From Deroplatys truncata (lineage: Eukaryota; Arthropoda; Insecta; Mantodea; Mantidae), in NCBI GenBank assembly GCA_030765065.1, contig CM060990.1, positions 674,218,118-674,282,117 of the forward strand: a stretch of DNA of 64,000 nucleotides, given 5' to 3'. A program made the translations under genes and the position numbers. Positions 2,530 through 64,000 of the stretch are shown piece after piece. The notes below the pieces were generated by a model. That model searched no databases, had not been told where the DNA came from, and saw only the letters and a program-made list of their open reading frames with translations. Within the stretch, counting starts at the first letter, position 1. The number at the start of each line of letters is the position of its first letter.

Positions 2530-2530
2530 G

Positions 2531-20355: not shown

Positions 20356-20885
20356 TTCAATTACCAATAAATAAACTTGAAAGACACTGATAGTAATAAC
20401 CTCACAAAACCAAGCTGCATTTAAACATAACACATAATTATTTAAAACTTATAAAACAGATACAATCTTACAAATAAATCCTTAAAATATTTAAATACTA
20501 TAATAAAAATATATTTTACTCGTGTGAGAGGGCTGTATATTTTGTTTCTAAAAAATTCGGCTATATTTTGAACTCTTATGAAGATGAAGTTTTGTTGTAG
20601 TTACAGTAATGAACACCAGATGGAAGAAACAACCAATACACACTGACTATGGTGCAAATTTGAATGATTTTTTTGGAAAGTAACTATTTTGCAAGCGAGA
20701 ACAAAAATGGGCGTGGCAGGCATTTAAATTTCCGTGCAGTGGTTTTTAAAAATGACTACCAAACCCTTTAAAAATGTGCTTATCAACATAAAACGCTTTT
20801 AAATGTTTGACTAACATTATAAAGACTTAATTTATGCAGAAAACAAAAAATTGAAAATTTTGGCCATTTTGACTAAAAAATCTGT

Positions 20886-33294: not shown

Positions 33295-33555
33295 TTTTTG
33301 TCCTTCAAATGCAAAGAAAATGGAATACTCCACATAGCAACCAGCTCTTAAAATATTTGACTATCGCTTAAAACCTACCATATTCCCCTTGCATCTACAA
33401 GAAAATTAGCAATAAGATTAACATTTCGATATCTAGATTAACATGAAACATATGGGGAATAAGCGTTTGTAAAAATAGATTGTACAAGAGTAGAAAAGGT
33501 CGTGTGAGTGTAACACATCAGATATTTTTGTCCTGAACATGCAAAGAACGCTTAA

Positions 33556-35905: not shown

Positions 35906-37367
35906 TTAAAAGATTTGACGATCGCTTAAAACCTACCATATTCCCATTGCAACTACAAGAAAATTAGCAATAAGATTAACATCTCGATATCTCGATTAAC
36001 ATGAAACATATGGCGAATAAGCGTTTGTAGAAATAGTTTGTACAAGAGTAGAAAAGGTCATGTGAGTGTAACACATCAGATTTTTTTTTGTCCTGGACAT
36101 GCAAAGAGCGCTTAAAAGATCTGACTATCGCTTAAAACGTACCATATTCCCCTTGCATCTACAAGAAAATTAGCAATAAGATTAACATCGCGATATCTCG
36201 ATTAACATGAAACATATGGGGAATAAGCGTTTATAAGAATAGTTTGTACAAGAGTAGAAAAGGTCATGTGAGTGTAACACATCAGATTTTTTTGTCCTGG
36301 ACATGCAAAGAGCGCTTAAAAGATCTGACTATCGCTTAAAACCTACCATATTCCCCTTGCATCTACAAGAAAATTAGCAATGAGATTAACATCTCGATAT
36401 CTCGATTAACATGAAACATATGGGGAATAAGCGTTTGTAGAAATAGTTTGTACAAGAGTAGAAAAGGTCATGTGAGTGTAACACATCAGATTTTTTTGTC
36501 CTGGACATGCAAAGAGCGCTTAAAAGATCTGACTATCGCTTAAAACCTACCACATTCCCCTTGCATCTACAAGAAAATTAGTAATAAGATTAACATCGCG
36601 ATATCTCGATTAACATGAAACATATGGGGAATAAGCGTTTATAGGAATAGTTTTTACAAGAGTAGAAAAGGTCATGTGAGTGTAACACATCAGATTTTTT
36701 TGTCCTGGACATGCAAAGAGCGCTTAAAAGATCTGACTATCGCTTAAAACCTACCATATTCCCCTTGCATCTACAAGAAAATTAGCAATAAGACTAACAT
36801 CGCGATATCTCGATTAACATGAAACATATGGGGAATAAGCGTTTGTAAAAATAGTTTGTACAAGAGTAGAGTAGGTCATGTGAGTGTAAACCATCATATA
36901 TTTTTGTCCTGGACATGCAAAGAGCGCTTAAAAGATCTGACTATCGCTTAAAACCTACCATATTCCCCTTGCATCTACAAGAAAATTAGCAATAAGGTTA
37001 ACATCGCGATATCTCGATTAACATGAAACATATGAGGAATAAGCGGTTGTAAAAATAGTTTGTACAAGAGTAGAAAAGGTCATGTGAGTGTAACACATCA
37101 GATATTTTTGCCCTGGACATGTAAAGAGCGCTTAAAAGATCTGACTATCGCTTAAAACCTACCGTATTGCTATTGCATCTACAAGAAAATTAGTAATAGG
37201 ATTAACATCGCGATTAACATGAAGCATATGGCGAATAAGCGTTTGTAAAAATAGTTTGTACAAGAGTAGAGAAAGTCATGTGAGTGTAACACATCAGATT
37301 TTTTTATAATGTTTCGTATTTAAATTCAGACTCTGGCTACCTCGCTTGAAGTAGAGTAATATTTCGT

Positions 37368-40704: not shown

Positions 40705-40865
40705 TTTGGAATTAATTGTTCTTTCACACAAGCCGTGTGTTGGACAGGGTTGGAAAGGTAGAATCAGATGACTGAAAAATTCAATGCCATAGCCGTGATT
40801 TGAACCACGGATCTCCCGGTCTCCGTCCGGTTGCTCTAACCACTGAGCTACCATGACAACATGCT
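40705..40865 (-). repeat. SINE family C, complete head (reverse)
   Basis: Reverse complement GTCATGGTAGCTCAGTGGTT ... ATCCGTGGTTCAAATCACGG has good A and B boxes, then GCTATGGCATTGAATTTTTC and the tail CAACACACGGCTTGTGTGAA, which ends GAACAATTA. It is 70-80% tRNA-like over the first 72 bases. Confidence 0.75.
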
Positions 40866-42217: not shown

Positions 42218-42499
42218 CTATCCATCATGGAATTTTTGGGGGGGATTTTCCAAACGATGATCGATGTCGTCTAATATTTCTTCGGTAAGAACCGAACGCC
42301 GTCTTTTAGATTTCTTAACCTGAATACTTCCTGTGGCCTGAAATATACTGTAAAGTTCCTGGATTGTTGTACGGCCTGGAACTTTTACACCTGGAAATCT
42401 TTCTGCAAATCGCACCTTCACTTCGCGAGCTGACCGAGTTAACACATATGAATCATAAATAAATACACGCTGTGCAGTAGAAAACATATACTGAGCCAT
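42218..42499 (-). pseudogene. N-terminal helix-turn-helix of mariner-like transposase
   Basis: ATG at 42499 opens MAQYMFSTAQRVFIYDSYVL, then RSAREVKVRFAERFPGVKVP, TTIQELYSIFQATGSIQVKK and TEEILDDIDHRLENPPQK. This is the DUF4817-type DNA-binding N-terminus (about 85 residues) found ahead of the DDE domain in insect mariner-like transposases. It is free of stops, but at 42240 it joins directly to the 3' end of the same gene, so the catalytic domain is missing. Confidence 0.75.
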
Positions 42500-42676
42500 A
42501 ATATACTTTGTGACTAAGTACAGGACAAAATAATAAATGACTAGTAATAACTGAACTACATCACATCACCGTCAACTCAAAGCTGCACTTCACACTGCAG
42601 AACAAAACCACAACAGTGTGACTTTGTTTATAGTAGCGGTGCGTTATCATGTTTTTATCATGTTTCCACACGCCCA

Positions 42677-44830: not shown

Positions 44831-45407
44831 TGAAAATAACGTATAGTGTATACGATTCATACATTTCGGTTATCATTCTGACATGATCTTGTGGAGTGGA
44901 CTTCGGTAAGCATTGTATTGTTTGCAGGTGCCAAGTAGTTCACTCCCGGCTGCAACCCACATTGGTATAATGGTGCAGGGAATGACGAACGAAGGGAGCG
45001 CAGAGGTGTGCGGGGGAGGGAGTGCGGGTAATAAGCTGCATGTTGTTGGTTAACCTAGTAGTCAGAGAGCATAGAATAGGATGATCAACAGGAACAATAC
45101 TTTTCGTTCCGTCCCATACACAGTCATCTATTGAATTCACAGTAAATGTTTACCTCACTACCGGTCTTCCATTTATTGAACAGCATCTCTGATAACGTTG
45201 CCTGTATGCCACGTGGTTTGTGCCGTGTTGCGTGTATCGGGTTTTAATTTATGAATCAAAGTGGTTTATTTAGCTAAATACAGGTAAACGCTACTATAAG
45301 GAGAAACAATAATTTCCGTTCAGTCTCTTTTAGCGCAACAATTTTCAACGCTGAACTTGGAGGAAAATAATGAAATTAAACGCATTGGCAGGCCCACACC
45401 ATACCTA
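44831..45407. other. No recognisable gene
   Basis: Includes a G-rich stretch at 44985-45030. Nothing identified. Confidence 0.4.
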
Positions 45408-46275
45408 AAAATCTGATGTGTTACACTCACATAATTTTCTCTACTCTTGTACAAACTATTTTTACAAACGCTTATTCTCCATATGCTTCATGTTAATCGA
45501 GATGTCAATCTTATTGGTAATTTTCTTGTAGATGCAAGGGCAATATGGTAGGTTTTAAGCGATAGTCAAATATTTTAACGCTGGTTGCTATGTGGCGCAT
45601 TCCATTCTCTTTGCATGTCCAGAACATAAAAAAATGAATAACGAATTTGAGAAAAAGTATAAGTATTGGAAAATTTAAGGGAATAACAAGTAATATCTCG
45701 AAAACTGTTCACACAATAAAAGAAATGTATATGACATAAATTGTGTATTTTAACGCGATCTACATTTTTCGTGTAGTAAAATTTTGTCTATCTCTTATGG
45801 TTTACCAGTTATACAAAAGTCGTTCACAATGAAGAATACTTTTGGAGACATTCCCAGAAAATTTGAGATATATATTTCATTTCTTATGACAATATCTTAA
45901 ATATATGATATTTTAATCAAAATCGTTAAAGCCATTTTTGAGAAAATTAAAATTTTCGAAAAATGTTCCATGTAAAGGGTAGTCTAGGGTGGGGGGATTT
46001 TCTTGAAAACCTTTGTGTCGCATCACGGGAAGATGCTGAACCTAAATACCAAGTTTGGTGTTTATCCGACTGTTCGTTTCTGAGTTATGCTGTTCACAGA
46101 CACACAGACACACACAAAGACACACACACACAGACACACACGGACATGTTTCCAAAAATGCTTTTTTTGGATTCAGGGGGTCTCAAAACATGTATTTCCG
46201 CTGAAATCTCGGTATCGAATTTTTGGGTGGAATACAATACTTCCCCTACTTACTATACGTAGTAGAGAAAGTAAA
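45408..46275 (-). repeat. Family R copy 8, complete, one satellite monomer
   Basis: Reverse-oriented and the best full-length example: 5' hairpin at 46275-46245 (TACTTTCTCTACTACGTATA on the minus strand), body, then a single 204-bp monomer from about 45620 to 45408 ending ACACATCAGATTTTT. This fixes the family layout as 5' hairpin, about 640-bp body and one or more 204-bp monomers, with no terminal inverted repeat and no conserved ORF. A CA-rich run lies at 46098-46142. Confidence 0.9.
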
Positions 46276-46279: not shown

Positions 46280-48210
46280 ACTCAGGTAGTTCAAACAAAC
46301 ACAAGAAGCTTTAACAGGAATTTTAACAGCGATATATATGAAAAATATGATTGGATGTGTGGTTGTGATATTAAAAACGCCCTGTTTTGCTTTCCTTGCG
46401 TTTTGTTTGGTGGTGAAGATACATGGACAAAGCATGGCGTGAATGATTTGCAGAAATACTGTCAGTCTTGTTATCCTTGGCAATGTAAATATAGCAAAAC
46501 AGACGGACAGTGCATATCGGAGAGCAATTGAAGAACACAACCAGAAAGTGGCTCAAAATAGATATGTTTTAAACAATGTTTTTAACTGCATTAGGTTTTG
46601 TGGGGCCTTTGAATTGGCTCTTCCAGGACATGATGAGTCACCGAATTCAAGTAACCCTGGTATTTTTCGTGTACTGATAAATTTCAGTGCAGAGCTAGAC
46701 TGTATTCTGAAAAACCATTTGGAAAATTCAACAGTGTTTAAGGGAACGCCAAAAACGATTCAAAATGAAATTTTGCAATGCATGCTTCAAGTGTGTCATG
46801 AGGAGATATCGAAAAAAATAAAAGACTCGCCATTTTAATCTGTCATAGCAGATGAAACCAGCGACGTAGCATCCAAGTATCAAATGATAATTGTCTATAG
46901 ATATCTGGTAAACCATAAGCCAGTGGAAAGGTACTGGGGTTTTGTGAATCCTATAGGGCACAAAGCAGATAACTTAGCTGCATGCATATTGCCAGAACTT
47001 GATCGACACCTGCTAGGCTGTGAACATAAATTGACTGCTCAAACATACGATGGGGATAATGTTATGTCTGGGTCGAAAAATGGCGTTCAATCCATCATAA
47101 AACAGAAGTACAGGTCTGCAGAATACATTCATTGCCATGCGCATCAGTTAAACTTAATTATGTTAAATGCAGCATCAGCGAATAGTGGTGTACGATTTTT
47201 CTTCATAAATCTTCAAGGAATTTGTGCTTTTTTTATCTAACTCTCCTCAGAGAACATCAGTTTTAGAAGTAGTGCAGAAGTGGCTGCCAAGATCAGTGCA
47301 AACGAGATGGAACTTTCAATCTAGGTCTGTCAACACAGTTTTCGAATACAGGGAGGAGTTAATAGAATGTATGAAAATCATAAGGAGAGGCGAAAGAATC
47401 ACCAATTCAAGTTCTGTTCTTCAAGTATCTGGTTTTATTGGAATTTTAAGTGATGCACATTTCATATTTGGGTTGTCCTTCTTCCATAAAATTATGCCCC
47501 ATGTCGATATTTTCTACAACCAAATTCAGAGGAGCGACTGTACTCCTGTAATGGTCCAGGATAGACTTAATTATTTTGAGGTGGAAATTCTCAAAATTAG
47601 AAGCACCATAATTTCCACTGCAGTTGATGAGAATGTAACGAAGAAAAGAAAAATTGTGGAACACACTGAAAGAAAACGAAAGGCCATTGAAGTGTGTGAT
47701 GTAATCATTACTGAAATGAAAGACAGGTTCAGATTTGTTGCTCATATGGGAGAAGCAGCCCTCTTTCAGCCTGGCAGATTTTCAGCACATAAGACTTCGT
47801 TCCCGGAACAACATATTGAAGTTACCCTTCAGACATATTCTTTTATTGAAGAAAAGAAACTGATTACAGAACTTTCCACAATGGATAGTACTGAAGAATT
47901 TAAAAACATAACTGGGATTGTTCCACTAATGGAGTTTTACAGGGACAATAATTTATGTTCCACTTTTAGTGAATCTGTTAAACTACTAAGTTTCATTCTA
48001 ACAATCCCCATGACAACATGTGAGGCAAAAAGATGCTTCTCTATTCTGAAAAGAATTAAAACATTTCTGCGTAACACAATGTCTGAGGAGAGGTTATCTG
48101 CGTTGGCCATGCTTTCCATTGAAAGGGATTTCAAGAACTTCAGTGAGCTGGTCATCGATAAGTTTGTTGGCAGGAAGGAGAGAAGGTCAGTTTTCTCTAT
48201 AAATAGGTGA
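46280..48210 (+). pseudogene. hAT transposase (ZMYM1-like type), broken in three places
   Basis: In order: a TTF-type zinc finger segment RSFNRNFNSDIYEKYDWMCG ... FCFPCVLFGG (46305-46420); SAYRRAIEEHNQKV; the first catalytic Asp in VIADETSDV (46845-46870); TYDGDNVMSG (47046-47072); HCHAHQLNLI; SNSPQRTSVLEVVQKWLPRS and VQTRWNFQSR; and the C-terminal dimerisation block TIPMTTCEAKRCFSILKRIK ending SALAMLSIE. Breaks: a deletion/frameshift near 46450; an in-frame TAA at 46836-46838 just before the first Asp; and a one-base shift in a T run near 47228. The N-terminus abuts family R copy 8. The stop TGA at 48208-48210 abuts the tandem array. No terminal repeats found. Confidence 0.85.
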
Positions 48211-48368
48211 GTGCTATATTCTACACTATTTATGAAATGTGCATGTGTTATATATTGTGAATTCCCATTTCTTGTGTGTTTGCATAAATTAATTAGCCTA
48301 AAGTGAGAAACTTATTCCGTATTTATTACTTAGAATATTTCAAATTGCAAGGATAATTTTGTGAACCA

Positions 48369-48790
48369 TCAAAGTTCAGAGTCACCGTCCAAAGCTATTG
48401 TTAAATCCCTGGTCCCTGCATTGCGTTCTACAGCTTCTTTCATGCTTTTCCTACACACTTTTTCTACTGCTGGACCAAGTACTTTTACAAACATGGAGAA
48501 CTTTGCTGGGGGTTTAGGGAGATTCATGATGCCACACAAAATATTTCTTGCAGTCTGTCCTTTGCCTTTCGCTCTCGGTCCATACACTAAACATAGATTA
48601 ATGTCATGCAGCATTACTGCCTTCCCTTCACATGAAAATCTTTTGCTTCTGAATTCATGAATTTATGTTTATTTTCCCAGTTTGTGCAAATAAGTCTCAA
48701 TTCACTTGCCAAACCAGCACATTTTATTCTCAGACATGGTAACTGGACCCTGACATGTTTTACAACAGACAAACACACCTAGTGCTGCTT
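48369..48790 (-). pseudogene. Mutator-like-domain transposase N-terminal fragment, unit copy 1
   Basis: Minus strand: CCKTCQGPVTMSE (zinc module, near 48760), two stops, then INLCLVYGPRAKGKGQTARN, GIMNLPKPPAKFSMFVKVLG and GTRDLTIALDGDSEL. This is the family block VxRxIGKGxxxxxxFCxxMNxPxPPxKFxxYxK ... (D/N)IxVxLDGxWQKRG, ending at the first catalytic Asp. The Trp of DGxW is replaced and the rest of the enzyme is absent. Confidence 0.75.
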
Positions 48791-49140
48791 ATAATGAAGA
48801 GATACTAATTAATTCATAACGAAAAATCAACACTTTCGTCTTCTATCATTTCTTCATAAAGTTCTAGTGCAGGTTTTATCTTTTTGTGAGACTATGTACA
48901 TATATAACTATTATATGTATTGAGGTTAGGAGTATCACATCCATTTGTTTCTGTTATTTCTTGCTGCTTAGCAACATTTTCTTGAATATTCTAGTATTTC
49001 TAGGCATTTTAAATATGAATATCAAAAGACAAGGATAAGTAAAACTCTCACTTTTCACCAAAAAATATAAAAAATAGCAACACAAAACGACAATGTGCTA
49101 TATCACAATAAAATATAAACAACTGGCAGACATACTGAAA

Positions 49141-49515
49141 CATGGTGGCCAACGTAGAAATTCCCCAAAAAGGAATAAACACCCCTAAAGACATCGAAAA
49201 TTTCATTTCGATATCTCTCATAGGAAAAAAGATAGAATGTTACACTTTTAATGTCACTTTGCTGTCAATTTGATATCTTTTTGACAGTTGCAACACGTTT
49301 AAAAATTGAAAATTACCTATATACTCTATCATATAGTAAATAAAACGTTAAATATCGTATTAATCGTTGAAGTCTGGAGAATAAACGAAATGAAAACCTA
49401 AATTTTGAAAATTTGACCATTCATGATCATTCTGAAACCCCTGAAAAATGTGATTTTAGACTTCACTACCACAAAAGATATATTAATAAAATTACAAGGT
49501 AATGCAGAGTATTGA
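49141..49515 (+). pseudogene. Broken counterpart of the 124-codon unit ORF, copy 1
   Basis: Starts ATGGTGGCCAACGTAGAAAT as in the other copies but runs into a stop after NVTLLSI because of one inserted base near 49252; further indels follow. Confidence 0.7.
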
Positions 49516-50129
49516 ATTATCTTGTTTTCATTTAATAATCATGAAAAAGACAAAAAATATGTCTTCATTTCTCACTAGCACACAACTTTTTCTGATATTT
49601 ACTGTTTACAGGAAACTAATCCTTTGAAAACATTTTGGTCGCTTACTTTGAGGCAGATAGTGTATGGAAAACTCATTAGGTCTGCTACCAGCACTGATGC
49701 TGCTGCCCCTATTAAATTATTAAAGTAACATTATTTTAGCTGTGTCTACTGTAATTTATAATGCAATATCAGACATATTTTTGTGTATTCTGCATAATTG
49801 TATTTTGCGTAAAGTAAACATTTCACTCAACACTTTAACTGCTATATTGCTTCATGCATGATATCATCAGTTCTAGTCATCTAGCATGAGACAATATGCT
49901 AAGTGAAGTGTTGATATAATACAATCGGTTAACATTGCTTCAATCTGTAAAAGTGCCATTTTTTTCTCATTTGCGCACCTGAAATAGTATATCTACTGCT
50001 ATGTATACATTTACAATCTTGTTTACTGCCCTGTTTCATGTTCTTGAGCACTGATACTAAATACAGTGTATGAAGCGTGAAGGCAGCCTGCCTATTACCC
50101 TTGCCATATACATAAAAGGGGTGGTTACT

Positions 50130-50960
50130 TTTTTTTATTTTTATTTATGGACGCTCTATAACTGCTGCGGTCCTTAGCGTCCCATTCTGTATTGGGCGTG
50201 AAAGACCGGTAATTTTGCTCAGAGGCCTCTTTATCAGGTTTGAGGTTCTTTTACGTGCCGTAAATCTACGACACGGGACCACCGGCTTTACTTCCCTTCC
50301 GAAGGAAGCCATGCTAAACATTTTTACGCCCGAAAAAACCCATCGCCCTCCGCCGGGTTTGAACCCGCGACCTAGGAAACTAGAAACTAACAAGGTACCA
50401 CTAGTCCACGGAGGACGACAGGGGTGGTTACGTCTGTGGGATCGATTGTCCCGGGTTCGATCCCCGGTGTCCACCCAGTCTGGCCCATGGGCTTTACGTG
50501 GTTTCCCCAGGTAGCCAGGCGAATGCTGGAGTAGTTCATGCTCTCCGACAAGTCTTCTTCCTCTCATTTCCTGTACCCATAATCTTCCTTGTCATCTGTT
50601 TCATTGTTATAGGACAGGCGACGGTGTTCGGCCGGTTGCGGCTGGACGGTGGCTTGGGCTCTGGAAAGGTTTCTTCCCTGGCGCTGCTGCAGTACCGCTC
50701 AGTTATGTCGGATCCGCTCTATCTGGACACGTTAGGGACCCCGTCCATGCTTGCGCCCGTCGGCATCCGTATCTGTTCGAGCTTCGGGTGTCTCCCGTTA
50801 TCCTTCCTACCCTCCCAGGGGTCACGTTGGAAGCACCAGGGCCGATTGGCCTACGTGCGGTGCTTTGCCCCGTTTCCGGGGCCTCTCCATGATACGAGTC
50901 TTTCTGCCTTTTCTACCTTTGCCAAGTATAAGAGGCTAGTATTACTCAAGTGTTACAACA
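50130..50960. repeat. Head-to-head pair of SINE-like families A (reverse) and B (forward), unit copy 1
   Basis: Family A: reverse complement from about 50415 starts GTCCTCCGTGGACTAGTGGT, has the box GCGGGTTCAAACCCGGC, and ends in the ATTTATGGACG/AAAATAAA tail at 50130. Family B: from about 50425, GTGGTTACGTCTGTGGGATC, box CCCGGGTTCGATCCCCGG, then TTTCCCCAGG and a G+C-rich body to GGGCCTCTCC near 50890. The long ORFs in this block come from its composition. Confidence 0.75.
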
Positions 50961-51430
50961 ATTATTTGTAGATATTGCATTAATGTACACGCGTATATTA
51001 AGATTCCGTAACCGTTTACTATAAGTTTGCATTGTGATTTTTCATACCATTAAAATAAATGAACATTGTCACAATTATTGTTGTTGTATTCGAGAAATAA
51101 GGTTTCTACCTATCTTAAAATTCTCTGAAATAAATGACCGTAGTTTATTAAATAAAATCATTATAACAATATTATTTTCAATACTCTTATTTCTTTCTAG
51201 TAAATTGTTCCTAAATTCTTTATTGTTATGTACTGTATTATTTATGATATTGTGTGTCTACCATGCGAGAAAAGGCGTAAGTATTTATCTTCGTTGCTCT
51301 CCAATGTATGTTTATTTGAAGCTTTTATGACATAAAACAAAATTAAGTTTGCATGCATTTCTTATATTGAGAAAAACAGATCAATAATAAAACCTTGTTA
51401 AATATTCAAATATGCTCAGATACCTTATGA
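50961..51430. other. AT-rich spacer of the tandem unit
   Basis: Conserved between units and contains a 79-98-codon hydrophobic frame (from 51034; ATT start in the track sense, not ATG), which is not convincing. Equivalent stretches lie at 54925-55385, 58880-59343 and 62840-63300. Confidence 0.4.
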
Positions 51431-51720
51431 TTATGACTTAGCAATCAAACAAATTTCCCCTACAAGCTTAATTCCCATCTTGTTTAGGAAATCTACATAT
51501 GCATTTAGATTTAATTTCTCCCAAGACCGCTCTGAATATTGAATTAGCTTTTCTTTAGCTTCCAACTTGCGGAATCGTCAAATATCAGGTATGGACTTGT
51601 ATTTTTTCATCAGAGGCAGTACGTAATGTGTAATTGGTCCTGTGGAATCCCAAAACCACAATCCAAATTGCGCTCAAGCTAAATGCATTCCATAGGCACG
51701 CATTTTGGGGCTTGTTCTTT
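51431..51720 (-). pseudogene. Decayed ORF end of unknown family, unit copy 1 (also near 55388, 59346, 63305)
   Basis: Minus strand: RTSPKMRAYGMHLA, stop, AQFGLWFWDSTGPITHYVLP, LMKKYKSIPDI, stop, then 43 open codons RFRKLEAKEKLIQYSERSWE, KLNLNAYVDFLNKMGIKLVG and a final stop at 51431. The protein-like composition and shared stops suggest an old coding remnant that was already dead before the unit was amplified. I do not recognise the family. Confidence 0.35.
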
Positions 51721-52293
51721 GAAAACACTTTTATGTAATAGTTCTAATGTCTGTAGTTTAAAATTGCTTAGGCACATTAATTTTGGAAGGTGATTATGGA
51801 TAAAAGCAATTGGGGGAGGGTGTCTTCTCTTTGTGATAAGGAAAATACTTGACCAGCTTTAGTTAATAAAGGAAATTGACAGAAAGGGTTGTTTAGGCAG
51901 TCTTAGACTTAGTTGTAGCTTTATCAAGGTGCAGAGACACTTTAAAAATGAGAGTAATAAACAGTGATAATAACATTTTAAAAAAGAATCATACCAATTC
52001 TCCTACCAATGTACATATATGATAATCTTTCCATAAGTAAAGGAGTACAAAGCTTGAGAAATGGATCACAATCCAAAATAAACTCCATCTCTACAAGGAA
52101 TCACAATGTTTAAGCTCACTAGTTCATCCATATCGTGTTCAGATTTATAATTTTCTTCGCTGACATTTTTCCAATGTAGAAGTGCTACACTGTTTATGAA
52201 ATGTGCATGTGTTATATATTGTGAATTCCCATTTCATGTGTGTTTGCGTAAATTAATCAGCCTATAGTGAGAAATTTATTCCGTGTTTATTAC

Positions 52294-52760
52294 TTAGAAT
52301 ATTTCAAATTGCAAGCATAATTTTGTGAACCACCAAAGTTCAGAGTCACTATCCAAAGCTATTGTTAAATCCCTGGTCCCTGCATTGCGTTCTACAGCTT
52401 CTTTCATGCTTTTCCTACACACATTTTCTACTGCTGGACCAAGTACTTTTACGTACATGGAGAACTTTGCTAGGGGTTTAGGGAGATTCATGATACTTAT
52501 TGCAGTCTGTCCTTTGCCTATCGCTCTCGGTCCATACACTAAACATAGATTAATGTCATGCAGCATTACTGCCTTCTTTTCACATGAAATTCTTTCGCTT
52601 CTGAATTCATGAATTTATGATTATTTTCCCAGTTTGTGCAAATAAGTCTCAATTCACTTGCCAAACCAGTATATTTTTTTCTCAGACATGGTAACTGGTA
52701 CCTGACATTTTTTACAACAGAAAAACTCACCTAGTCCTGCTTATAATGAAGAGATACTAA
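52294..52760 (-). pseudogene. Transposase N-terminal fragment, unit copy 2
   Basis: Same block as in copy 1, with a 6-codon deletion after GKGQTA (ISIMNLPKPLAKFS). Open from 52566 to 52294, with LTIALDSDSELWWF where the DG pair of the active site has become DS. Confidence 0.7.
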
Positions 52761-53094
52761 TTAATTCATAACGAAAAATCAACACTTTCGTTTTCTATCA
52801 TTTCTTCATAAAGTTCTAGTGCAGGTTTTATCTTTTTGTGAGACTAACTATGTACATCTATACCTATTATTTGTATTGAGGTTAGGAGTATCACATCCAT
52901 TTGTTTCTGTTATTTCTTGCTGCTTACCAACATTTTCTTGAATATTCTAGTATTCTAGGCATTTTAAGTATGAATATAAAAACACAAGGATAAGTAAAAC
53001 TCTTACTTTTCACCAAAAATATAAAAAAAGCAACACAAAACGACAATGTGCTATCTCACAATAAAATGTAATCAACTTGCAGACATACTGAAAT

Positions 53095-53469
53095 ATGGTG
53101 GCCAACGTAGAAATTCCCCAAAGAGGAATAAACACCCCTAAAGACATCGAAAATTTCATTTCGATATCTCTCATAGGAAAAAAGATAGAATGTTACAATT
53201 TTAATGCACTTTGCTGTCAATTTGATATCTTTTTGACAGATGCAACACGTTTAAAAATTGAAAATTACCTATATACTCTATCATATGGTAAATATAACGT
53301 GTTAAATATCATATTAATCGTTGAAGTCTGGAGAATAAGAAGAAATGAAAACCTAAATTCTGAAAATTTGACCATTCATGATCATTCTGAAACCCCTGAA
53401 AAATGTGATTTATACTTCACTACCACACAAGATATATTAATAAAATTACAAGGTAATGCAGAGTATTGA
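53095..53469 (+). CDS. 124-codon ORF of unknown function, unit copy 2
   Basis: ATG at 53095 opens MVANVEIPQRGINTPKDIEN and continues through YLYTLSYGKYNVLNIILIVE, VWRIRRNENLNSENLTIHD to a stop at 53467-53469. No domain recognised; no signal peptide or membrane segment is evident. It is kept open in copies 2, 3 and 4 but broken in copy 1, which given the near-identity of copies 2 and 3 says little about selection. A GTAATG donor-like site follows LIKLQ, but joining to the ORF at 53567 is out of frame. Coding status unproven. Confidence 0.3.
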   Translation: MVANVEIPQRGINTPKDIENFISISLIGKKIECYNFNALCCQFDIFLTDATRLKIENYLYTLSYGKYNVLNIILIVEVWRIRRNENLNSENLTIHDHSETPEKCDLYFTTTQDILIKLQGNAEY

Positions 53470-53566
53470 ATTATCTCGTTTCCATTTAATATTAATGAAA
53501 AAGACAAAAAATATGTCTTCATTTCTCACTAGCACACAACTTTTTCTGCAATATTATTGTTTACAG

Positions 53567-53695
53567 GAAACTAATCCTTTGAAAACATTTTGGTCGCTTA
53601 CTTTGAGGCAGATAGTGTATGGAAAACTCACTAGGTCTGCTACAAGCACTGAAGCTGCTGCCGCTATTAAATTATTGAAAGTAACATTATTTTAG
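53567..53695 (+). CDS. Exon-like segment after an acceptor site, unit copy 2 (also 57525-57653, 61482-61610)
   Basis: After ATTGTTTACAG the frame reads ETNPLKTFWSLTLRQIVYGK, then LTRSATSTEAAAAIKLLKVT and a stop. The segment is found in all four units; copy 1 has a frameshift near its end (TTAAAGTAAC). It has the look of a coding exon but no family was recognised. Confidence 0.25.
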   Translation, partial: ETNPLKTFWSLTLRQIVYGKLTRSATSTEAAAAIKLLKVTLF

Positions 53696-54094
53696 CTCTG
53701 TCTACTGTAATTTATAATGCAATTATCAGACATATTTTTGTGTATTCTGCATAATTGAATTTTGCATAAAGTAAACATTTCACTCAACACTTTAACTACC
53801 ACATTGCTTCATGCACGATATCATCAGTTCTAGTCAGCTAGCATGAGACAATATGCTAAGTGAAGTGTTGATATAATACAATCAGTTAACATTGCTTCAA
53901 TCTGTAAAAGTTCCAATTTGTTTTCTCATTTGCGCACCTGAAACAGTATATCTACTGCTATGTATACATTTACAATCTTGTTTACTGTCCTGTTTCATGT
54001 TCTTGAGAGCTGAGTACTAACTACAGTGCATGAAGCTTGTGAAGGCAGCCTGCCTATTACCCTTGCCATATATAAAACGGGTAGTTATTTTTTT

Positions 54095-54920
54095 TAAATT
54101 TTATTTATGGACGCTCTATAACGGCTGTCGTCCTTAGCGTCCTATTCTGTATTGGGCGTGAAAGACCGGTAATTATGCTTAGAGGCCTCTTTATCAGGCT
54201 TGAGGTTCTTTTACGTGGCGTAAATCCACGATACGGGACCACCGGCTTTACTTCCCTTCCGAAGAAAGCCATGCTAAGGAGTTTTACGCCCGAAAAGCCC
54301 AACGCCCTCCGCCGGGTTTGAGCCCGCGATCTTGGAAACTAGAGGCTAGCACGGTACCACTAGTCCACGGAGGACGACAGGGGTGGTTACGTCTGTGGGA
54401 TCGATTGTCCCGGTTCGATCCCAGGTGTCCGACCAGTCTGGCCTATGGGTTTTACGCGGTTTCCCCAGGTCGCCAGGCGAATGCTGGAGTTGTTCATCTT
54501 CTACCACAAGTCTTCTTCCTCTCATTTCCTGTACCCATCATCTTCCTTGTCATCTGTTTCAGGGTTATAGGACAGGCGACGGTGTTCGGCCGGTGCGGCT
54601 GGACGGTGGCTTGGGCTCTGGAAAGGTTTCTTCCCTGGCGTCGCTGCAGTACCGCTCAGTTATGTGGGATTCACTCTATGTGGACACGTTAGGGACCCCG
54701 TCCATGCTTGCGCCCGTCGGCATCCGTATCTGTTCGAGCTTCGGGTGTCTCCCGTTATTCTTCCCCCCTCCCAGGGATCACGTTGGACGCACCAGGGCCG
54801 ATTGGCCTACGTGCGGTGCTTTGCCCCGTTTCCGGGGTCTCTCCATGATATGAGTCTTTCTGCCTTTTCTAACTTTGCCAAGTATAAGAGGCTAGTATTA
54901 CTCAAGTGTTACAACAATTA
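54095..54920. repeat. SINE A/B pair, unit copy 2
   Basis: Same structure as in copy 1. The B box of family B is damaged here (CCCGGTTCGATCCCAGG), with one base lost. Confidence 0.75.
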
Positions 54921-56250
54921 TTTGTAGATATTGCATTAATGTAGACGTGTATATTAAGATTCCGTAACCGTTTACTATAAGTTTGCATTGTGATTTTTCC
55001 TACCATTAAAATAAATGAAAATTTTCACAATTATTGTTGTTGTATTCGAGAAATAAGGTTTCTACCTATCCTAACATTATCTGAAATAAATGACCGTAGT
55101 TTATTAAATAAAATCATTACAACAATATTATTTTCAATACTCTTATTTCTTTCTAGTAAATTGTTCCTAAATTCTTTATTGTTTTGTACTGTATTATTTC
55201 TGATATTGTGTGTCTACCATGCGAGATAAGGCGTAAGTATTTATCTTCGTTGCTCTCCAATGTATGTTTATTTGAAGCTTTTATTACATAAAACAAAATT
55301 AAGTTTGCATGCATTTTTTATATTGAGAAAAACAGCTCAATCATCAAAACCTTGTTAAATATTCAAATATTCTCAGATACCTTATGATTATGACTTAGCA
55401 ATCAAACTAGTTTCCCCTACAAGCTTAATTCCCATCTTGTTTAGGAAATCTACATATGCATTTAGATTTAATTTCTCCCAAGACCGCTCTGAATATTGAA
55501 TTAGCTTTTCCTTAGCTTCCAACTTGCGGAATCGTCAAATATCAGGTATGGACTTGTATTTTTTCATCAAAGGCAGTAAGGAATGTGTAATTGGTGCTGT
55601 GGAATCCCAAAACCACAATCCAAATTGCGCTCAAGCTAAATGCATTCCATAGGCACGTATTTTGGGGCTTGTTCTTTGAAAAAACTTTTATGTAATAGTT
55701 CTAATGTCTGTTGTTTAAAATTGCTTAGGCACATTAATTTTGGAAGGTGATTATGGATAAAAGCAATTGGGGGAGGGTGTCTTCTCTTTGTGATAAGGAA
55801 AATACTTGACCAGCTTTAGTTAATAAAGGAAATTGACAGAAAGGGTTGTTTAGGCAGTCTTAGACTTAGTTGTAGCCTTATCAAGGTGCAGAGACACTTT
55901 AAAAATGAGAGTAATAAACAGTGATAATAACATTTTAAAAAAGAATCATACCAATTCTCCTACCAATGTACATATATGATAATCTTTCCATAAGTAAAGG
56001 AGTACAAAGCTTGAGAAATGGATCACAATCCAAAATAAACTCCATCTCTACAAGGAATCACAATGTTTAAGCTCACTAGTTCATCCATATCGTGTTCAGA
56101 TTTATAATTTTCTTCGCTGACATTTTTCCAATGTAGAAGTGCTACACTGTTTATGAAATGTGCATGTGTTATATATTGTGAATTCCCATTTCATGTGTGT
56201 TTGCGTAAATTAATCAGCCTATAGTGAGAAATTTATTCCGTGTTTATTAC

Positions 56251-56718
56251 TTAGAATATTTCAAATTGCAAGCATAATTTTGTGAACCACCAAAGTTCAG
56301 AGTCACTATCCAAAGCTATTGTTAAATCCCTGGTCCCTGCATTGCGTTCTACAGCTTCTTTCATGCTTTTCCTACACACATTTTCTACTGCTGGACCAAG
56401 TACTTTTACGTACATGGAGAACTTTGCTAGGGGTTTAGGGAGATTCATGATACTTATTGCAGTCTGTCCTTTGCCTATCGCTCTCGGTCCATACACTAAA
56501 CATAGATTAATGTCATGCAGCATTACTGCCTTCTTTTCACATGAAATTCTTTCGCTTCTGAATTCATGAATTTATGATTATTTTCCCAGTTTGTGCAAAT
56601 AAGTCTCAATTCACTTGCCAAACCAGTATATTTTTTTCTCAGACATGGTAACTGGTACCTGACATTTTTTACAACAGAAAAACTCACCTAGTCCTGCTTA
56701 TAATGAAGAGATACTAAT
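56251..56718 (-). pseudogene. Transposase N-terminal fragment, unit copy 3
   Basis: Protein identical to that in copy 2 over the open part (56523-56251). Confidence 0.7.
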
Positions 56719-57052
56719 TAATTCATAACGAAAAATCAACACTTTCGTTTTCTATCATTTCTTCATAAAGTTCTAGTGCAGGTTTTATCTTTTTGTGAGA
56801 CTAACTATGTACATCTATACCTATTATTTGTATTGAGGTTAGGAGTATCACATCCATTTGTTTCTGTTATTTCTTGCTGCTTACCAACATTTTATTGAAT
56901 ATTCTAGTATTCTAGGCATTTTAAGTATGAATATAAAAACACAAGGATAAGTAAAACTCTTACTTTTCACCAAAAATATAAAAAAAAGCAACACAAAACG
57001 ACAATGTGCTATCTCACAATAAAATGTAATCAACTTGCAGACATACTGAAAT

Positions 57053-57427
57053 ATGGTGGCCAACGTAGAAATTCCCCAAAGAGGAATAAACACCCCTAAA
57101 GACATCGAAAATTTCATTTCGATATCTCTCATAGGAAAAAAGATAGAATGTTACAATTTTAATGCACTTTGCTGTCAATTTGATATCTTTTTGACAGATG
57201 CAACACGTTTAAAAATTGAAAATTACCTATATACTCTATCATATGGTAAATATAACGTGTTAAATATCATATTAATCGTTGAAGTCTGGAGAATAAGAAG
57301 AAATGAAAACCTAAATTCTGAAAATTTGACCATTCATGATCATTCTGAAACCCCTGAAAAATGTGATTTATACTTCACTACCACACAAGATATATTAATA
57401 AAATTACAAGGTAATGCAGAGTATTGA
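57053..57427 (+). CDS. 124-codon ORF of unknown function, unit copy 3
   Basis: Protein identical to the ORF in copy 2. Confidence 0.3.
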   Translation: MVANVEIPQRGINTPKDIENFISISLIGKKIECYNFNALCCQFDIFLTDATRLKIENYLYTLSYGKYNVLNIILIVEVWRIRRNENLNSENLTIHDHSETPEKCDLYFTTTQDILIKLQGNAEY

Positions 57428-58052
57428 ATTATCTCGTTTCCATTTAATATTAATGAAAAAGACAAAAAATATGTCTTCATTTCTCACTAGCACACAACTT
57501 TTTCTGCAATATTATTGTTTACAGGAAACTAATCCTTTGAAAACATTTTGGTCGCTTACTTTGAGGCAGATAGTGTATGGAAAACTCACTAGGTCTGCTA
57601 CAAGCACTGAAGCTGCTGCCGCTATTAAATTATTGAAAGTAACATTATTTTAGCTCTGTCTACTGTAATTTATAATGCAATTATCAGACATATTTTTGTG
57701 TATTCTGCATAATTGAATTTTGCATAAAGTAAACATTTCACTCAACACTTTAACTACCACATTGCTTCATGCACGATATCATCAGTTCTAGTCAGCTAGC
57801 ATGAGACAATATGCTAAGTGAAGTGTTGATATAATACAATCAGTTAACATTGCTTCAATCTGTAAAAGTTCCAATTTGTTTTCTCATTTGCGCACCTGAA
57901 ACAGTATATCTACTGCTATGTATACATTTACAATCTTGTTTACTGTCCTGTTTCATGTTCTTGAGAGCTGAGTACTAACTACAGTGCATGAAGCTTGTGA
58001 AGGCAGCCTGCCTATTACCCTTGCCATATATAAAACGGGTGGTTATTTTTTT

Positions 58053-58878
58053 TAAATTTTATTTATGGACGCTCTATAACGGCTGTCGTCCTTAGCGTCC
58101 TATTCTGTATTGGGCGTGAAAGACCGGTAATTATGCTTAGAGGCCTCTTTATCAGGCTTGAGGTTCTTTTACGTGGCGTAAATCCACGATACGGGACCAC
58201 CGGCTTTACTTCCCTTCCGAAGAAAGCCATGCTAAGGAGTTTTACGCCCGAAAAGCCCAACGCCCTCCGCCGGGTTTGAGCCCGCGATCTTGGAAACTAG
58301 AGGCTAGCACGGTACCACTAGTCCACGGAGGACGACAGGGGTGGTTACGTCTGTGGGATCGATTGTCCCGGTTCGATCCCAGGTGTCCGACCAGTCTGGC
58401 CTATGGGTTTTACCCGGTTTCCCCAGGTCGCCAGGCGAATGCTGGAGTTGTTCATCTTCTACCACAAGTCTTCTTCCTCTCATTTCCTGTACCCATCATC
58501 TTCCTTGTCATCTGTTTCAGGGTTATAGGACAGGCGACGGTGTTCGGCCGGTGCGGCTGGACGGTGGCTTGGGCTCTGGAAAGGTTTCTTCCCTGGCGTC
58601 GCTGCAGTACCGCTCAGTTATGTGGGATTCACTCTATGTGGACACGTTAGGGACCCCGTCCATGCTTGCGCCCGTCGGCATCCGTATCTGTTCGAGCTTC
58701 GGGTGTCTCCCGTTATTCTTCCCCCCTCCCAGGGATCACGTTGGAAGCACCAGGGCCGATTGGCCTACGTGCGGTGCTTTGCCCCGTTTCCGGGGTCTCT
58801 CCATGATATGAGTCTTTCTGCCTTTTCTAACTTTGCCAAGTATAAGAGGCTAGTATTACTCAAGTGTTACAACAATTA
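58053..58878. repeat. SINE A/B pair, unit copy 3
   Basis: As copy 2, with the same damaged B box and a private CCCGG for CGCGG change near 58412. Confidence 0.75.
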
Positions 58879-60217
58879 TTTGTAGATATTGCATTAATGT
58901 AGACGTGTATATTAAGATTCCGTAACCGTTTACTATAAGTTTGCATTGTGATTTTTCCTACCATTAAAATAAATGAACATTTTCACAATTATTGTTGTTG
59001 TATTCGAGAAATAAGGTTTCTACCTATCCTAACATTATCTGAAATAAATGACCGTAGTTTATTAAATAAAATCATTACAACAATATTATTTTCAATACTC
59101 TTATTTCTTTCTAGTAAATTGTTCCTAAATTCTTTATTGTTTTGTATTGTATTATATCTGATATTGTGTGTCTACCATGCGAGATAAGGCGTAAGTATTT
59201 ATCTTCGTTGCTCTCCAATGTATGTTTATTTGAAGCTTTTATTACATAAAACAAAATTAAGTTTGCATGCATTTTTTATATTGAGAAAAACAGCTCAATC
59301 ATCAAAACCTTGTTAAATATTCAAATATTCTCAGATACCTTATGATTATGACTTAGCAATCAAACTAGTTTCCCCTACAAGCTTAATTCCCATCTTGTTT
59401 AGGAAATCTACATATGCATTTAGATTTAATTTCTCCCAAGACCGCTCTGAATATTGAATTAGCTTTTCCTTTGCTTCCAACTTGCGGAATCGTCAAATAT
59501 CAGGTATGGACTTGTATTTTTTCATCAAAGGCAGTAAGGAATGTGTAATTGGTGCTGTGGAATCCCAAAACCACAATCCAAATTGCGCTCAAGCTAAATG
59601 CATTCCATAGGCACGTATTTTGGGGCTTGTTCTTTGAAAAAACTTTTATGTAATAGTTCTAATGTCTGTTGTTTAAAATTGCTTAGGCACATTAATTTTG
59701 GAAGGTGATTATGGATAAAAGCAATTGGGGGAGGGTGTCTTCTCTTTGTGATAAGGAAAATACTTGACCAGCTTTAGTTAATAAAGGAAATTGACAGAAA
59801 GGGTTGTTTAGGCAGTCTTAGACTTAGTTGTAGCCTTATCAAGGTGCAGAGACACTTTAAAAATGAGAGTAATAAACAGTGATAATAACATTTTAAAAAA
59901 GAATCATACCAATTCTCCTACCAATGTACATATATGATAATCTTTCCATAAGTAAAGGAGTACAAAGCTTGAGAAATGGATCACAATCCAAAATAAACTC
60001 CATCTCTACAAGGAATCACAATGTTTAAGCTCACTAGTTCATCCATATCGTGTTCAGATTTATAATTTTCTTCGCTGACATTTTTCCAATGTAGAAGTGC
60101 TACACTGTTTATGAAATGTGCATGTGTTATATATTGTGAATTCCCATTTCTTGTGTGTTTGCGTAAATTAATCAGCCTATAGTGAGAAACTTATTCCGTA
60201 TTTATTACTTAGAATAT

Positions 60218-60680
60218 TTAAAATTGCAAGCATAATTTTGTGAGCCACCAAAGTTCAGAGTCACTATCCAAAGCTATTGTTAAATCCCTGGTCCCTGCAT
60301 TGCGTTCTACAGCTTCTTTCATGCTTTTCCTACACACATTTTCTACTGCTGGACCAAGTACTTTTACGTACATGGAGAGCTTTGCTGGGGGTTTAGGGAG
60401 ATTCATGATACTTATTGTAGTCTGTCCTTTGCCTATCGCTCTCGGTCCATACACTAAACATAGTATAATGTCATGCAGCATTACTGCCTTCCCTTCACAT
60501 GAAATTCTTTCGCTTCTGAATTCATGAATTTATGATTATTTTCCCAGTTTGTGCAAATAAGTCTCAATTCACTTGCCAAACCAGTATATTTTTTTCTCAG
60601 ACATGGTAACTGGAACCTGACATTTTTACAACAGACAAACTCACCTAGTGCTGCTTATAATGAAGAGATACTAATTAATT
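60218..60680 (-). pseudogene. Transposase N-terminal fragment, unit copy 4
   Basis: As in copies 2 and 3 but with PPAKLSMYVK and an altered start (MLHDIILC); it shares the 6-codon deletion with them. Confidence 0.7.
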
Positions 60681-61009
60681 CATAACGAAAAATCAAACTT
60701 TCGTTTTCTATCATTTCTTCATAAAGTTCTAGTGCAGGTTTTATCTTTTTGTGAGACTAACCTTGTACATCTATACCTATTATTTGTATTGAGGTTAGGA
60801 GTATCACATCCATTTGTTTCTGTTATTTCTTGCTGCTTACCAACATTTTATTGAATATTCTAGTATTCTAGGCATTTTAAGTATGAATATCAAAACACAA
60901 GGATAAGTAAAACTCTCACTTTTCACCAAAAAATATAAAAAATAGCAACACAAAACGACAATGTGCTATATCACAATAAAATATAAACAACTGGCAGACA
61001 TACTGAAAC

Positions 61010-61384
61010 ATGGTGGCCAACGTAGAAATTCCCCAAAGAGGAATAAACACCCCTAAAGACATCGAAAATTTCATTTCGATATCTCTCATAGGAAAAAAGA
61101 TAGAATGTTACAATTTTAATGCACTTTGCTGTCAATTTGATATCTTTTTGACAGTTGCAACACGTTTAAAAGTTGAAAATTACCTATATACTCTATCATA
61201 TGGTAAATATAACGTGTTAAATATCATATTAATCGTTGAAGTCTGGAGAATAAGAAGAAATGAAAACCTAAATTCTGAAAATTTGACCATTCATGATCAT
61301 TCTGAAACCCCTGAAAAATGTGATTTATACTTCACTACCACACAAGATATATTAATAAAATTACAAGGTAATGCAGAGTATTGA
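61010..61384 (+). CDS. 124-codon ORF of unknown function, unit copy 4
   Basis: Differs from copies 2 and 3 at two residues (FLTVATRLKVEN for FLTDATRLKIEN); one of these is shared with copy 1 at the DNA level (GACAGTTGCAAC). Confidence 0.3.
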   Translation: MVANVEIPQRGINTPKDIENFISISLIGKKIECYNFNALCCQFDIFLTVATRLKVENYLYTLSYGKYNVLNIILIVEVWRIRRNENLNSENLTIHDHSETPEKCDLYFTTTQDILIKLQGNAEY

Positions 61385-62004
61385 ATTATCTCGTTTCCAT
61401 TTAATATTAATGAAAAAGACAAAAAATATGTCTTCATTTCTCACTAGCACACAACTTTTTCTGCAATATTATTGTTTACAGGAAACTAATCCTTTGAAAA
61501 CATTTTGGTCGCTTACTTTGAGGCAGATAGTGTATGGAAAACTCACTAGGTCTGCTACAAGCACTGAAGCTGCTGCCGCTATTAAATTATTGAAAGTAAC
61601 ATTATTTTAGCTCTGTCTACTGTAATTTATAATGCAATTATCAGACATATTTTTGTGTATTCTGCATAATTGAATTTTGCATAAAGTAAACATTTCACTC
61701 AACACTTTAACTACCACATTGCTTCATGCACGATATCATCAGTTCTAGTCAGCTAGCATGAGACAATATGCTAAGTGAAGTGTTGATATAATACAATCAG
61801 TTAACATTGCTTCAATCTGTAAAAGTTCCAATTTGTTTTCTCATTTGCGCACCTGAAACAGTATATCTACTGCTATGTATACATTTACAATCCTGTTTAC
61901 TGTCCTGTTTCATGTTCTTGAGAGCTGAGGACTAACTACAGTGCTTGAAGCTTGTGAAGGCCTATACCCTTGCACAAATATATAAAGTGGGTGGGTCCTT
62001 TTTT

Positions 62005-62835
62005 TATTTTTATTTATGGACGCTGTTTGACTGCTGTGGTCCTTAGCGTCCCATTTTATATTGGGCGTGAAAGACCGGTAATTTTGCTCAGAGACCTGTT
62101 TATCAGGATTGAGATTCTTTTATGTGCCGTAAATCTACGTCACGGGACCACCGGCTTTACTTCCATTCCGAAGGAAGCCATGCTAAGGATCTTTACGCCC
62201 GAAAAAATCCATCGCCCTCCGCCGGGTTTGAACCCGCGACCTTGGAAACTAGCGGCTAGCAGGTACCACTATTCCATGGAGGACGAAAGGGGTGGTTACG
62301 TCTGTGGGATCTATCGTCCCGGGTTCGATCCCCGGTGTCCACCCAGTCTGGCCCATGGGCTTTACGTGGTTTCCCCAGGTCGCCAGGAGAATGCTGGAGT
62401 AGTTCATCTGCTACCACAAGTCTTCTTCCTCTCATTTCCTGTACCCATCATCTTCCTTGTCATCTGTTTCAGGGTTATAGGACAGGCGACGGTGTTCGGC
62501 CGGTTTCGGCTGGACGGTGGCTTGGGCTCTGGAAAGGTTTCTTCCTTGGCGTCGCTGCAGTACCGCTCAGTTATGTCGGATCCGCTCTATCTGGACACGT
62601 TACGGACCCCGTCCATGCTTGCGCCCGTCGGTATCCGTATCTGTTCGAGCTTCGGGTGTCTCCCGTTATTCTTCCCCCCTCCCAGGGATCACGTTGGAAG
62701 CACCAGGACCGATTGGCCTACGTGCGGTGCTTTGCCCCGTTTCCGGGGCCTCTCCATGATATGAGTGTTTCTGCCTTTTCTAACTTTGCCAAATATAAGA
62801 GGCTAGTATTACTCAAGTGTTACAACAATTATTTG
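62005..62835. repeat. SINE A/B pair, unit copy 4
   Basis: Like copy 1 in keeping CCCGGGTTCGATCCCCGG intact. A 264-codon ORF (61970-62764) spans both SINEs and is judged fortuitous. Confidence 0.75.
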
Positions 62836-64000
62836 TAGATATTGCATTAATGTACACGCGTATATTAAAATTCCGTAACCGTTTACTATAAGTTTGCATT
62901 GTGATTTTTCCTACCATTAAAATAAATGAACATTGTCACAATTATTGTTGTTGTATTCGAGAAATAAGGTTCCTACCTATCTTAAAATTCTCTGAAATAA
63001 ATGACCGTAGTTTCTTAAATAAAATCATTATAACAATATTATTTTCAATACTCTTATTTCTTTCTAGTAAATTGTTCCTAAATTCTTTATTGTTTTGTAC
63101 TGTATTATTTCTGATATTGTGTGTCTACCATGCGAGATAAGGCGTAAGTATTTATCTTCGTTGCTCTCCAATGTATGTTTATTTGAAGCTTTTATGACAT
63201 AAAACAAAATATATTTGCATGCATTTTTAATATTGAGAAAAACAGCTCAATCATTAAAACCTTGTTAAATATTCACATATGCTCAGAGACCTTATGATTT
63301 TGACTTAGCAATAAAAAAAAAATTCCACTCCAAGCTTAATTCCCATCTTGTATAGGAAATCTTCTTATGCATTTAGATTTAATTTCTCCCAAGACCGCTC
63401 TGAATATTGAATTAGCTTTTCTTTAGCTTCCAACTTGCGGAATCGTCAAATATCAGGTATGGACTTGTATTTTTTCATCAGAGGCAGTGAGTAATGTGTA
63501 ATTGGTCCTGTGGAATCCCAAACGAACAACCTAGATTGCGCTGAAGCTAAATGCATTCCATAGGCACGTCTTTTGGGGCTTGTTGTTTAAAAAACTTTTA
63601 TGTAATAGTTCGAATATCTGTAGTTTAAAATTGCTTTAGCACAGTAATTTGGGACGGTTATTATGGATAAAAGCAATTGGGGGAGGGTGTCTTCTCTTTC
63701 TGTTAAGGAAAATACTTGACCAGCTTTAGTTAATAAAGGAAACTGTCAGAAAGGGTTGTTTAGGCAGTCTTAGACTTAGTTGTAGCTTTATCAAGGTGCA
63801 GATACACTTAAAATAATGAGAGTAGCAAACAGTGATAATAACATTTTAGAAAAGAATCATACCAATTCTCCAACCAATGTACATATATGATAATCTTTCC
63901 ATAAGTAAAGGAGTCCAAAGCTTGAGAAATAGATCACAATCCAAAATAAACACCATATCTACCAGGAATCACAATGTTTAGGCTCTCTAGTTCATGCATA

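What the first reader, a model, noticed from the sequence alone, without database searches (positions are those of the whole stretch)
48211..64000. Four-copy tandem array of a 3.96-kb unit with mosaic sequence exchange
Units follow each other without linkers. Copies 2 and 3 differ at about ten sites; copy 4 switches between copy-1-like and copy-2/3-like variants at several points. This pattern is expected from recent unequal crossing-over plus gene conversion. The unit is built from transposon debris, so it is an unusual large satellite candidate.
Basis: seen in the sequence. Interest (0 to 1): 0.7.

Follow-up and report, generated by a model that had tools for sequence, protein, structure and literature searches.

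The report
Transposon-debris tandem array inside larger duplications
A roughly 4-kb stretch built largely of old mobile-element remains has been copied head-to-tail on a large chromosome, then copied again inside bigger duplications and partly re-mixed between copies: real and instructive, but an ordinary kind of repeat evolution.

Summary
The array is real: units at window 48221-52184, 52185-56141, 56142-60099 and 60100-64000, the fourth cut by the window end. In the window's own genome (4.29 Gb, C16) this array has six units, and two sister arrays of four units lie about 197 kb left and 225 kb right, inside segmental duplicates (adjacent flanks differ by 0.6-1.3%). All three share outer junctions, two relic deletions and an LTR-like insertion site, so the array is older than the large duplications. 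Copies 2 and 3 (9 differences) have no counterpart in the sister arrays: probably a lineage lost or absent there, duplicated recently here. Mosaic exchange is statistically clear (46 runs against 79.6 expected; 0 of 10,000 shuffles), including a 720-bp tract identical between copies 2/3 and 4; but copy 4 is mainly its own lineage (98% to its counterparts), not a patchwork of copies 1 and 2/3. The unit is largely repeat debris; no coding constraint was seen. Likeliest mechanism: local duplication, unequal exchange and gene conversion, then segmental duplication. Human MaLR 'LTR arrays' are a close published analogue. Read depth could not be tested, so an assembly duplication of copies 2/3 stays possible. 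Interest is low to moderate.

The parts
46443..48210 (+). left flank of the array: broken hAT-family transposase, ending 10 bases before unit 1
   Evidence: Pfam PF05699 (hAT dimerisation) E=7e-9, above cut-off; PF14291 at E=0.0019 and 0.00039, both below cut-off; same junction in all three arrays
48221..52184 (+). unit B1; counterpart of A1/C1 (96.5/97.3%), with patches of other types at about unit columns 751-1000, 2501-3250 and 3581-4010
52185..56141 (+). unit B2; no counterpart in the sister arrays
56142..60099 (+). unit B3; 99.8% identical to B2 (9 differing columns)
60100..64000 (+). unit B4, cut by the window end (it ends at window position 64052); counterpart of A2 and C2
52185..52350 (+). 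unit positions 1-166; among the 45 listed matches only those in the arrays cover them
52351..53397 (-). dispersed repeat piece, unit 167-1213; a frame in B2 resembles Mutator-like transposase weakly (13.7 bits, cut-off 26.5), the matching frame in B4 did not
53397..54075 (+). left part of a second dispersed repeat, unit 1213-1891
54076..54869 (+). stretch with two short dispersed repeats (SINE-like: a recalled label), inserted into the second dispersed repeat, unit 1892-2685
   Evidence: in three dispersed copies the part up to 1889-1891 runs on directly into 2676-2686 and beyond
54870..55379 (+). right part of the second dispersed repeat, unit 2686-3195
55380..56141 (+). rest of the unit, origin not determined
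   Evidence: the genome search with this half of the unit did not complete
53258..53977 (+). tract of B2 identical to B4 61173-61892 (720 bp)
   Evidence: 108 polymorphic sites in a row, 0 of 2000 permutations as high
61173..61892 (+). the same tract in B4
51921..52184 (+). end of B1 identical to the end of B2 (55878-56141)
   Evidence: the longest B1-B2 shared run was not significant globally (0.249)

Best explanation
A low-copy, multi-kilobase tandem array (macro- or megasatellite type) of largely non-coding repeat debris. Inferred course: (1) a dispersed repeat took up two short SINE-like insertions and came to lie beside a Mutator-like fragment and other sequence, just beyond an hAT transposase remnant; (2) that 3.96-kb stretch was duplicated head-to-tail at ends without evident homology; (3) unequal exchange raised the unit number, while units decayed by deletion and one took an LTR-like insertion; (4) a segment holding the array, with copies now spaced about 197 and 225 kb apart, was duplicated to give at least three copies in direct orientation; (5) since then each array went its own way: a solo LTR-sized remnant in C, an internal deletion in A1, B2/B3 duplicated in B, conversion tracts between units. 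The order of steps 3 to 5 rests on comparison of the sister arrays; the mechanism of steps 1 and 2 is inferred from junctions alone. No function is indicated.
For: Three arrays with the same left and right junctions. Counterparts: A2-B4-C2 97.9-98.4%, A3-B5-C3 98.1-99.2%, A4-B6 98.9%, A1-C1 98.2%. The unit-4 deletion (about 3166-3748) and the unit-3 deletion (123-823) occur in all three arrays. An LTR-like insert sits at the same unit-3 site: 4147 bp with 1077-bp direct repeats in A and B, 1078 bp solo in C. Repeat-to-repeat divergence is 1.86-1.95% against 0.56-0.65% between A and B counterparts, so the insertion precedes the A/B split; flank divergence is 0.63-1.27%. Exchange: runs test; 13 of 91 unit pairs below 0.05 in a global permutation test, one of them (A4-C4) counterparts, best B2-B4, B3-B4 and C2-C4; segment trees that disagree, such as C4 with C2 in 1751-2300 and with A4/B6 in 1-750 and 3001-3240. 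Coding constraint not seen: variable sites 18/24/17 by codon position in the one frame tested.
Against: Reads were not available, so B2/B3 could be an assembly duplication. B2/B3 are not simple hybrids of present units (12-25 differences per 250 columns to every unit other than each other in 1751-2000, 13-26 in 2001-2250), so a lost or unsampled lineage must be assumed. Reciprocal crossing-over and one-way conversion cannot be told apart from one assembly. The permutation test uses 412 of 597 polymorphic columns (columns with a gap dropped). The tree of columns 1001-1750 did not list a B2/B3/B4 clade at the 0.85 support shown, although the three differ there by 0-2 per window (only clades of up to 6 units were printed). 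B1 against B2/B3 is not significant globally. The ends of the large duplication were not found; the searches for this did not complete.
Confidence: 0.86

Rival explanations
1. Assembly artefact: copies 2 and 3 are one unit, or two alleles, entered twice; the rest of the array is real.
For: 99.8% identity over the whole unit and no B2/B3 counterpart in arrays A and C.
Against: Nine differences; at three of them copy 3 carries letters found in other units, two of these nine columns apart (3056, 3065) and both of the A4/B6/C4 type, which is not how random errors look. Two alleles entered as two units are not excluded by this.
Confidence: 0.12
2. The 3.96-kb unit is itself a mobile element that inserts in tandem or by rolling-circle copying.
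For: Mobile-element content of the unit.
Against: With unit bases 1-2001 as query, the 20 listed matches of 93% or more all lie in three arrays with the same outer junctions; the 25 elsewhere are pieces of 73-90% identity, most of which start or stop at inner borders (167, 1213, 1891) and none of which covers 1-166 (40 of 1752 candidates scored, so a lower bound).
Confidence: 0.03
3. The array is kept by selection for a product or a chromatin role.
For: At least four units are present in each of three sister arrays.
Against: No Pfam match above cut-off in the five unit frames searched, no Rfam match in unit B2 at E<=1, no codon-position bias in the one frame tested and differing frame lengths between units, large deletions in several units.
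Confidence: 0.03

Closest known systems
Human MaLR 'LTR arrays' and other TE-patterned megasatellites (Warburton et al. 2008, PMC2588610; passages seen and section 8 read)
   Same: units of ~3.5 kb made of transposon fragments in tandem; tabulated arrays of 4 to 25 units; a later LTR insertion marking one monomer; arrays embedded in segmental duplications; further unequal crossing-over in each copy after dispersal
   Different: those are reported on 9 chromosomes in 25 arrays, built from one LTR class, the largest with higher-order repeats; here three arrays were found on one chromosome, with mixed repeat content, and I noticed no higher-order repeat within an array
TE-derived satellites: maize centromeric-retrotransposon tandem repeats (PMC3648361, title and start of abstract in the listing) and Tetris of Drosophila virilis (PMC4079207, title and start of abstract in the listing)
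   Same: tandem arrays arising from mobile-element sequence
   Different: by recall, shorter units taken from one element and higher copy number; here the unit spans several unrelated elements

Membership tests
Megasatellite / macrosatellite tandem array | kilobase-scale units head-to-tail without linkers | tested here: met
Megasatellite / macrosatellite tandem array | total array over 10 kb (size limit used in PMC2588610, start of abstract) | tested here: met
   26.6 kb at the window locus, insertion included; 18.1 and 15.65 kb at the sister loci
Megasatellite / macrosatellite tandem array | copy number varies by unequal exchange | tested here: inconclusive
   6, 4 and 4 units in three sister arrays; variation between individuals not testable
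Satellite DNA in the strict sense | long, high-copy arrays | tested here: not met
   14 units found, in three arrays (the search gives lower bounds)
Segmental duplication (over 1 kb, over 90% identity; definition recalled) | duplicated flanks outside the array | tested here: met
   A-B blocks of 19.4, 4.7 and 4.0 kb at 98.2-99.3% left of the arrays and 2.4 kb at 99.5% right; C flanks 98.6-99.5% to A and B
Mobile element as unit | full unit found singly at unrelated sites | tested here: not met
   within its lower-bound limits and with the first half of the unit only

The most novel reading that the evidence does not exclude
This part of C16 is a local hotspot of head-to-tail duplication at many scales: 42-bp, 204-bp, 3.96-kb and 5.9-kb arrays, and ~200-kb duplicates that hold some of them, all occur in the stretch examined. 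One recombination-prone or poorly recombining chromosome domain may keep creating and homogenising tandem repeats out of transposon debris.
Probability: 0.15. Interest if true: 0.4.

Novelty: new member of a known kind. Interest (0 to 1): 0.22.

Why it matters
It is a well-ordered case of how a large tandem repeat starts from repeat debris: outer junctions, relic deletions and an LTR-like insertion place the array before the large duplications, and the sister arrays help to separate exchange between units from shared ancestry. It adds no new mechanism.

Tried and rejected
Tandem Repeats Finder did not report the array; its longest period is 500. Coding: of five unit frames searched in Pfam none passed a cut-off; two weak matches below it, Mutator (13.7 bits) and PBP2 (14.1 bits); no codon-position bias in the one frame tested. 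RNA: no Rfam match in unit B2 at E<=1; ARAGORN found no tRNA in the window. The size of the large duplication, relatives of the second half of the unit, and whether other hAT copies run on into unit position 1 were asked, which did not complete because the machine was busy. Read depth could not be tested.
Full report
OBSERVATION. The window is C16:674218118-674282117 of a genome of 4.29 Gb in 818 contigs; C16 is 707,006,351 bases long. Self-comparison gives a period of ~3.96 kb from 48221 on. Units start at 48221, 52185, 56142 and 60100; the three internal junctions are the same over the 60 bases printed, while the left border of unit 1 has other sequence. There are no linkers.

EXTENT. The array is not limited to four units. 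After unit 4 (ends C16:674282169) comes B5, which lacks unit 123-823 and is split at about 1160 by a 4.1-kb insertion, and B6, which lacks about 3166-3748; the array ends at 674292960. Two sister arrays lie on the same chromosome: A 674069187-674087292 and C 674491798-674507447, four units each. First units are 197,151 and 225,460 bases apart (computed). The flanks are duplicated as well: A-B blocks of 19,437, 4,712 and 3,976 aligned bases at 98.2-99.3% left of the arrays, a 5,678-base block at 96.9% that crosses into the first unit, an 18,617-base block at 98.7% that includes array units, and 2,403 bases at 99.5% to the right. The ends of the large duplication were not found: A-B similarity reaches both ends of what I hold (674040001 in A, 674300000 in B), with an interruption of 8.9 kb in A before the last block. 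C was fetched only for 674488001-674508000.

SHARED HISTORY. The three arrays have the same left border, beyond the end of an hAT transposase, and the same right border. The unit join shows no bases shared exactly at the breakpoints; a short likeness nearby is too short to build on. Counterparts by identity: A2-B4-C2 97.9-98.4%; A3-B5-C3 98.1-99.2%; A4-B6 98.9%, with C4 at 96.6-97.0% to these; A1-C1 98.2%, with B1 at 96.5-97.3% to these. Units that are not counterparts are 92.7-96.1% alike, apart from C4 to A2, B4 and C2 at 96.6-96.8% and B2-B3 at 99.8%. Flanks next to the arrays differ by 0.63-0.90% on the left (3.0-3.8 kb) and 0.91-1.27% on the right (about 550 bases). So the array, with its two shared deletions, predates the large duplications. 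Which two of A, B and C are closest differs by place: A-C on the left flank, A-B in unit 3 and unit 4.

INSERTION AS A CLOCK. The unit-3 insert is 4,147 bp in A and B with 1,077-bp direct repeats, and 1,078 bp in C at the same site. The two repeats of one copy differ by 1.86% (A) and 1.95% (B), A and B counterparts by 0.56-0.65%, and the C remnant by 1.39-1.67% from all four. This fits an LTR element that inserted before the A/B split and was reduced to one repeat in C; that it is an LTR element rests on its structure, no family was tested. A 359-aa open frame lies on the minus strand of its interior; a likeness of its end to integrase C-termini is recalled and was not tested.

EXCHANGE. Among 166 sites where B1 differs from B2=B3 and B4 has one of the two letters, B4 follows B1 at 64 and B2/B3 at 102, in 46 runs; 10,000 shuffles gave a mean of 79.6 and none as low. 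A three-way count is not far from balanced (B1 alone 102, B2 alone 67, B4 alone 97), so B4 is a third lineage and not a patchwork of the other two. A GENECONV-like permutation (412 of 597 polymorphic columns, 2000 permutations, 91 pairs) gives 13 pairs below 0.05 globally, one of them (A4-C4) counterparts: B2-B4 and B3-B4 share 108 sites in a row (columns 1092-1807) and C2-C4 95 (2300-2958), with no permutation as high. Against: the longest B1-B2 shared run (3217-3997) is not significant globally (0.249). Exact identical tracts: B2 53258-53977 with B4 61173-61892; B1 51921-52184 with B2 55878-56141. Segment trees disagree: C4 groups with C2 in 1751-2300 (0.97) but with A4 and B6 in 3001-3240 (1.0) and 1-750 (0.989); in 3740-4010 A3 groups with unit-1 types and B2/B3 (0.902) while B5 and C3 group with the unit-2 types (0.92). 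The tree of 1001-1750 printed no B2/B3/B4 clade at 0.85 or more, although these differ by 0-2 per window there. Some tracts may predate the large duplications.

COPIES 2 AND 3. They differ at 9 columns. At 766 copy 3 has the letter of B4; at 3056 and 3065 it has the letters of A4, B6 and C4; at five columns one of the two copies has a letter found in no other unit; at 860 copy 2 has a gap and copy 3 a letter found in no other unit. They have no counterpart in A or C; by window the nearest unit changes between types, and in 1751-2250 none is nearer than 12-13 differences per 250 columns. I read this as a further lineage, lost or never present in A and C, duplicated in B after the large duplication (0.2% against 0.9%). 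An assembly duplication stays possible.

UNIT ANATOMY. Counts are (query: the first 2001 bases of B2; 45 matches, 20 in the arrays, 25 elsewhere; 40 of 1752 candidates scored, so lower bounds). Positions 1-166 are covered only in the arrays. Pieces of 167-1217 make up 11 of the 25, with a weak Mutator-like protein likeness below cut-off in B2 (13.7 against 26.5 bits). Pieces of 1213-1891 make up 14 of the 25, 12 of them on C16. In the three dispersed copies of the second kind that I fetched, the part up to 1889-1891 is followed directly by 2686-3195, 2686-3198 or 2676-3165 (L036-L038, cut by the ends of the fetched pieces in two), so about 1892-2685 was inserted. That stretch holds two short repeats that recur in 8 and 7 rows outside the arrays in the 260 kb held (rows of 60 bases or more). 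SINE-like is a recalled label; Rfam found nothing in unit B2. The origin of 3196-3957 is unknown.

FUNCTION. None is indicated. In the one frame tested (125 aa) variable sites fall 18/24/17 by codon position, and this frame is among the five longest in only 5 of 14 units.

KNOWN KIND. Warburton et al. 2008 (PMC2588610; passages, section 8) describe human arrays of ~3.5-kb units of transposon fragments, with an LTR6A insertion in one monomer, embedded in segmental duplications and altered by later unequal crossing-over. A similar order of events is inferred here. I did not see this particular array in the listings of three paper searches, which were not aimed at a named species. Rated a new member of a known kind.

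Noticed in passing
C16:674101161-674123388 (L015-L017): A second large tandem array, unit ~5.9 kb: three full copies (93.2% and 94.5% to the middle one) plus partial ones, about 14 kb right of array A. B at 674299112-674300000 matches A 674102319-674103205 at 97.3%, so B probably has it too.
   Followed up: partly
C16:674160656-674169356 (L021): An 8.7-kb stretch that matches itself at steps of 42 bp at about 90% identity: a 42-bp tandem array.
   Followed up: no
window 35905-37305: 6.9 copies of a 204-bp repeat. A related single copy lies at 33332-33555, overlapping the end of a longer dispersed repeat (32831-33528, inverted at 45407-46106), so this small array may have grown from inside that repeat.
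   Followed up: partly
window 18436-20448, minus strand: Mutator-like transposase in two open frames that together match most of the Pfam domain (8-200 and 211-357 of 357).
   Followed up: no
C16, relatives of unit 1213-1891: Of 14 listed dispersed copies 12 lie on C16, which is about 16.5% of the genome; the listing holds only the best candidates. Possibly a chromosome-biased repeat.
   Followed up: no
window 40785-40857, minus strand: Rfam tRNA match of 42 bits that ARAGORN does not report; perhaps a tRNA-derived repeat.
   Followed up: no
L029:2139-3218, minus strand: Open frame of 359 aa with a run of similar short segments, inside the LTR-like insert of unit B5; the interior also shows self-matches in direct orientation.
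   Followed up: partly
window 42221-42565, minus strand: Frame with a Pfam DUF4817 helix-turn-helix match just above cut-off (23.7 against 22.6 bits).
   Followed up: no
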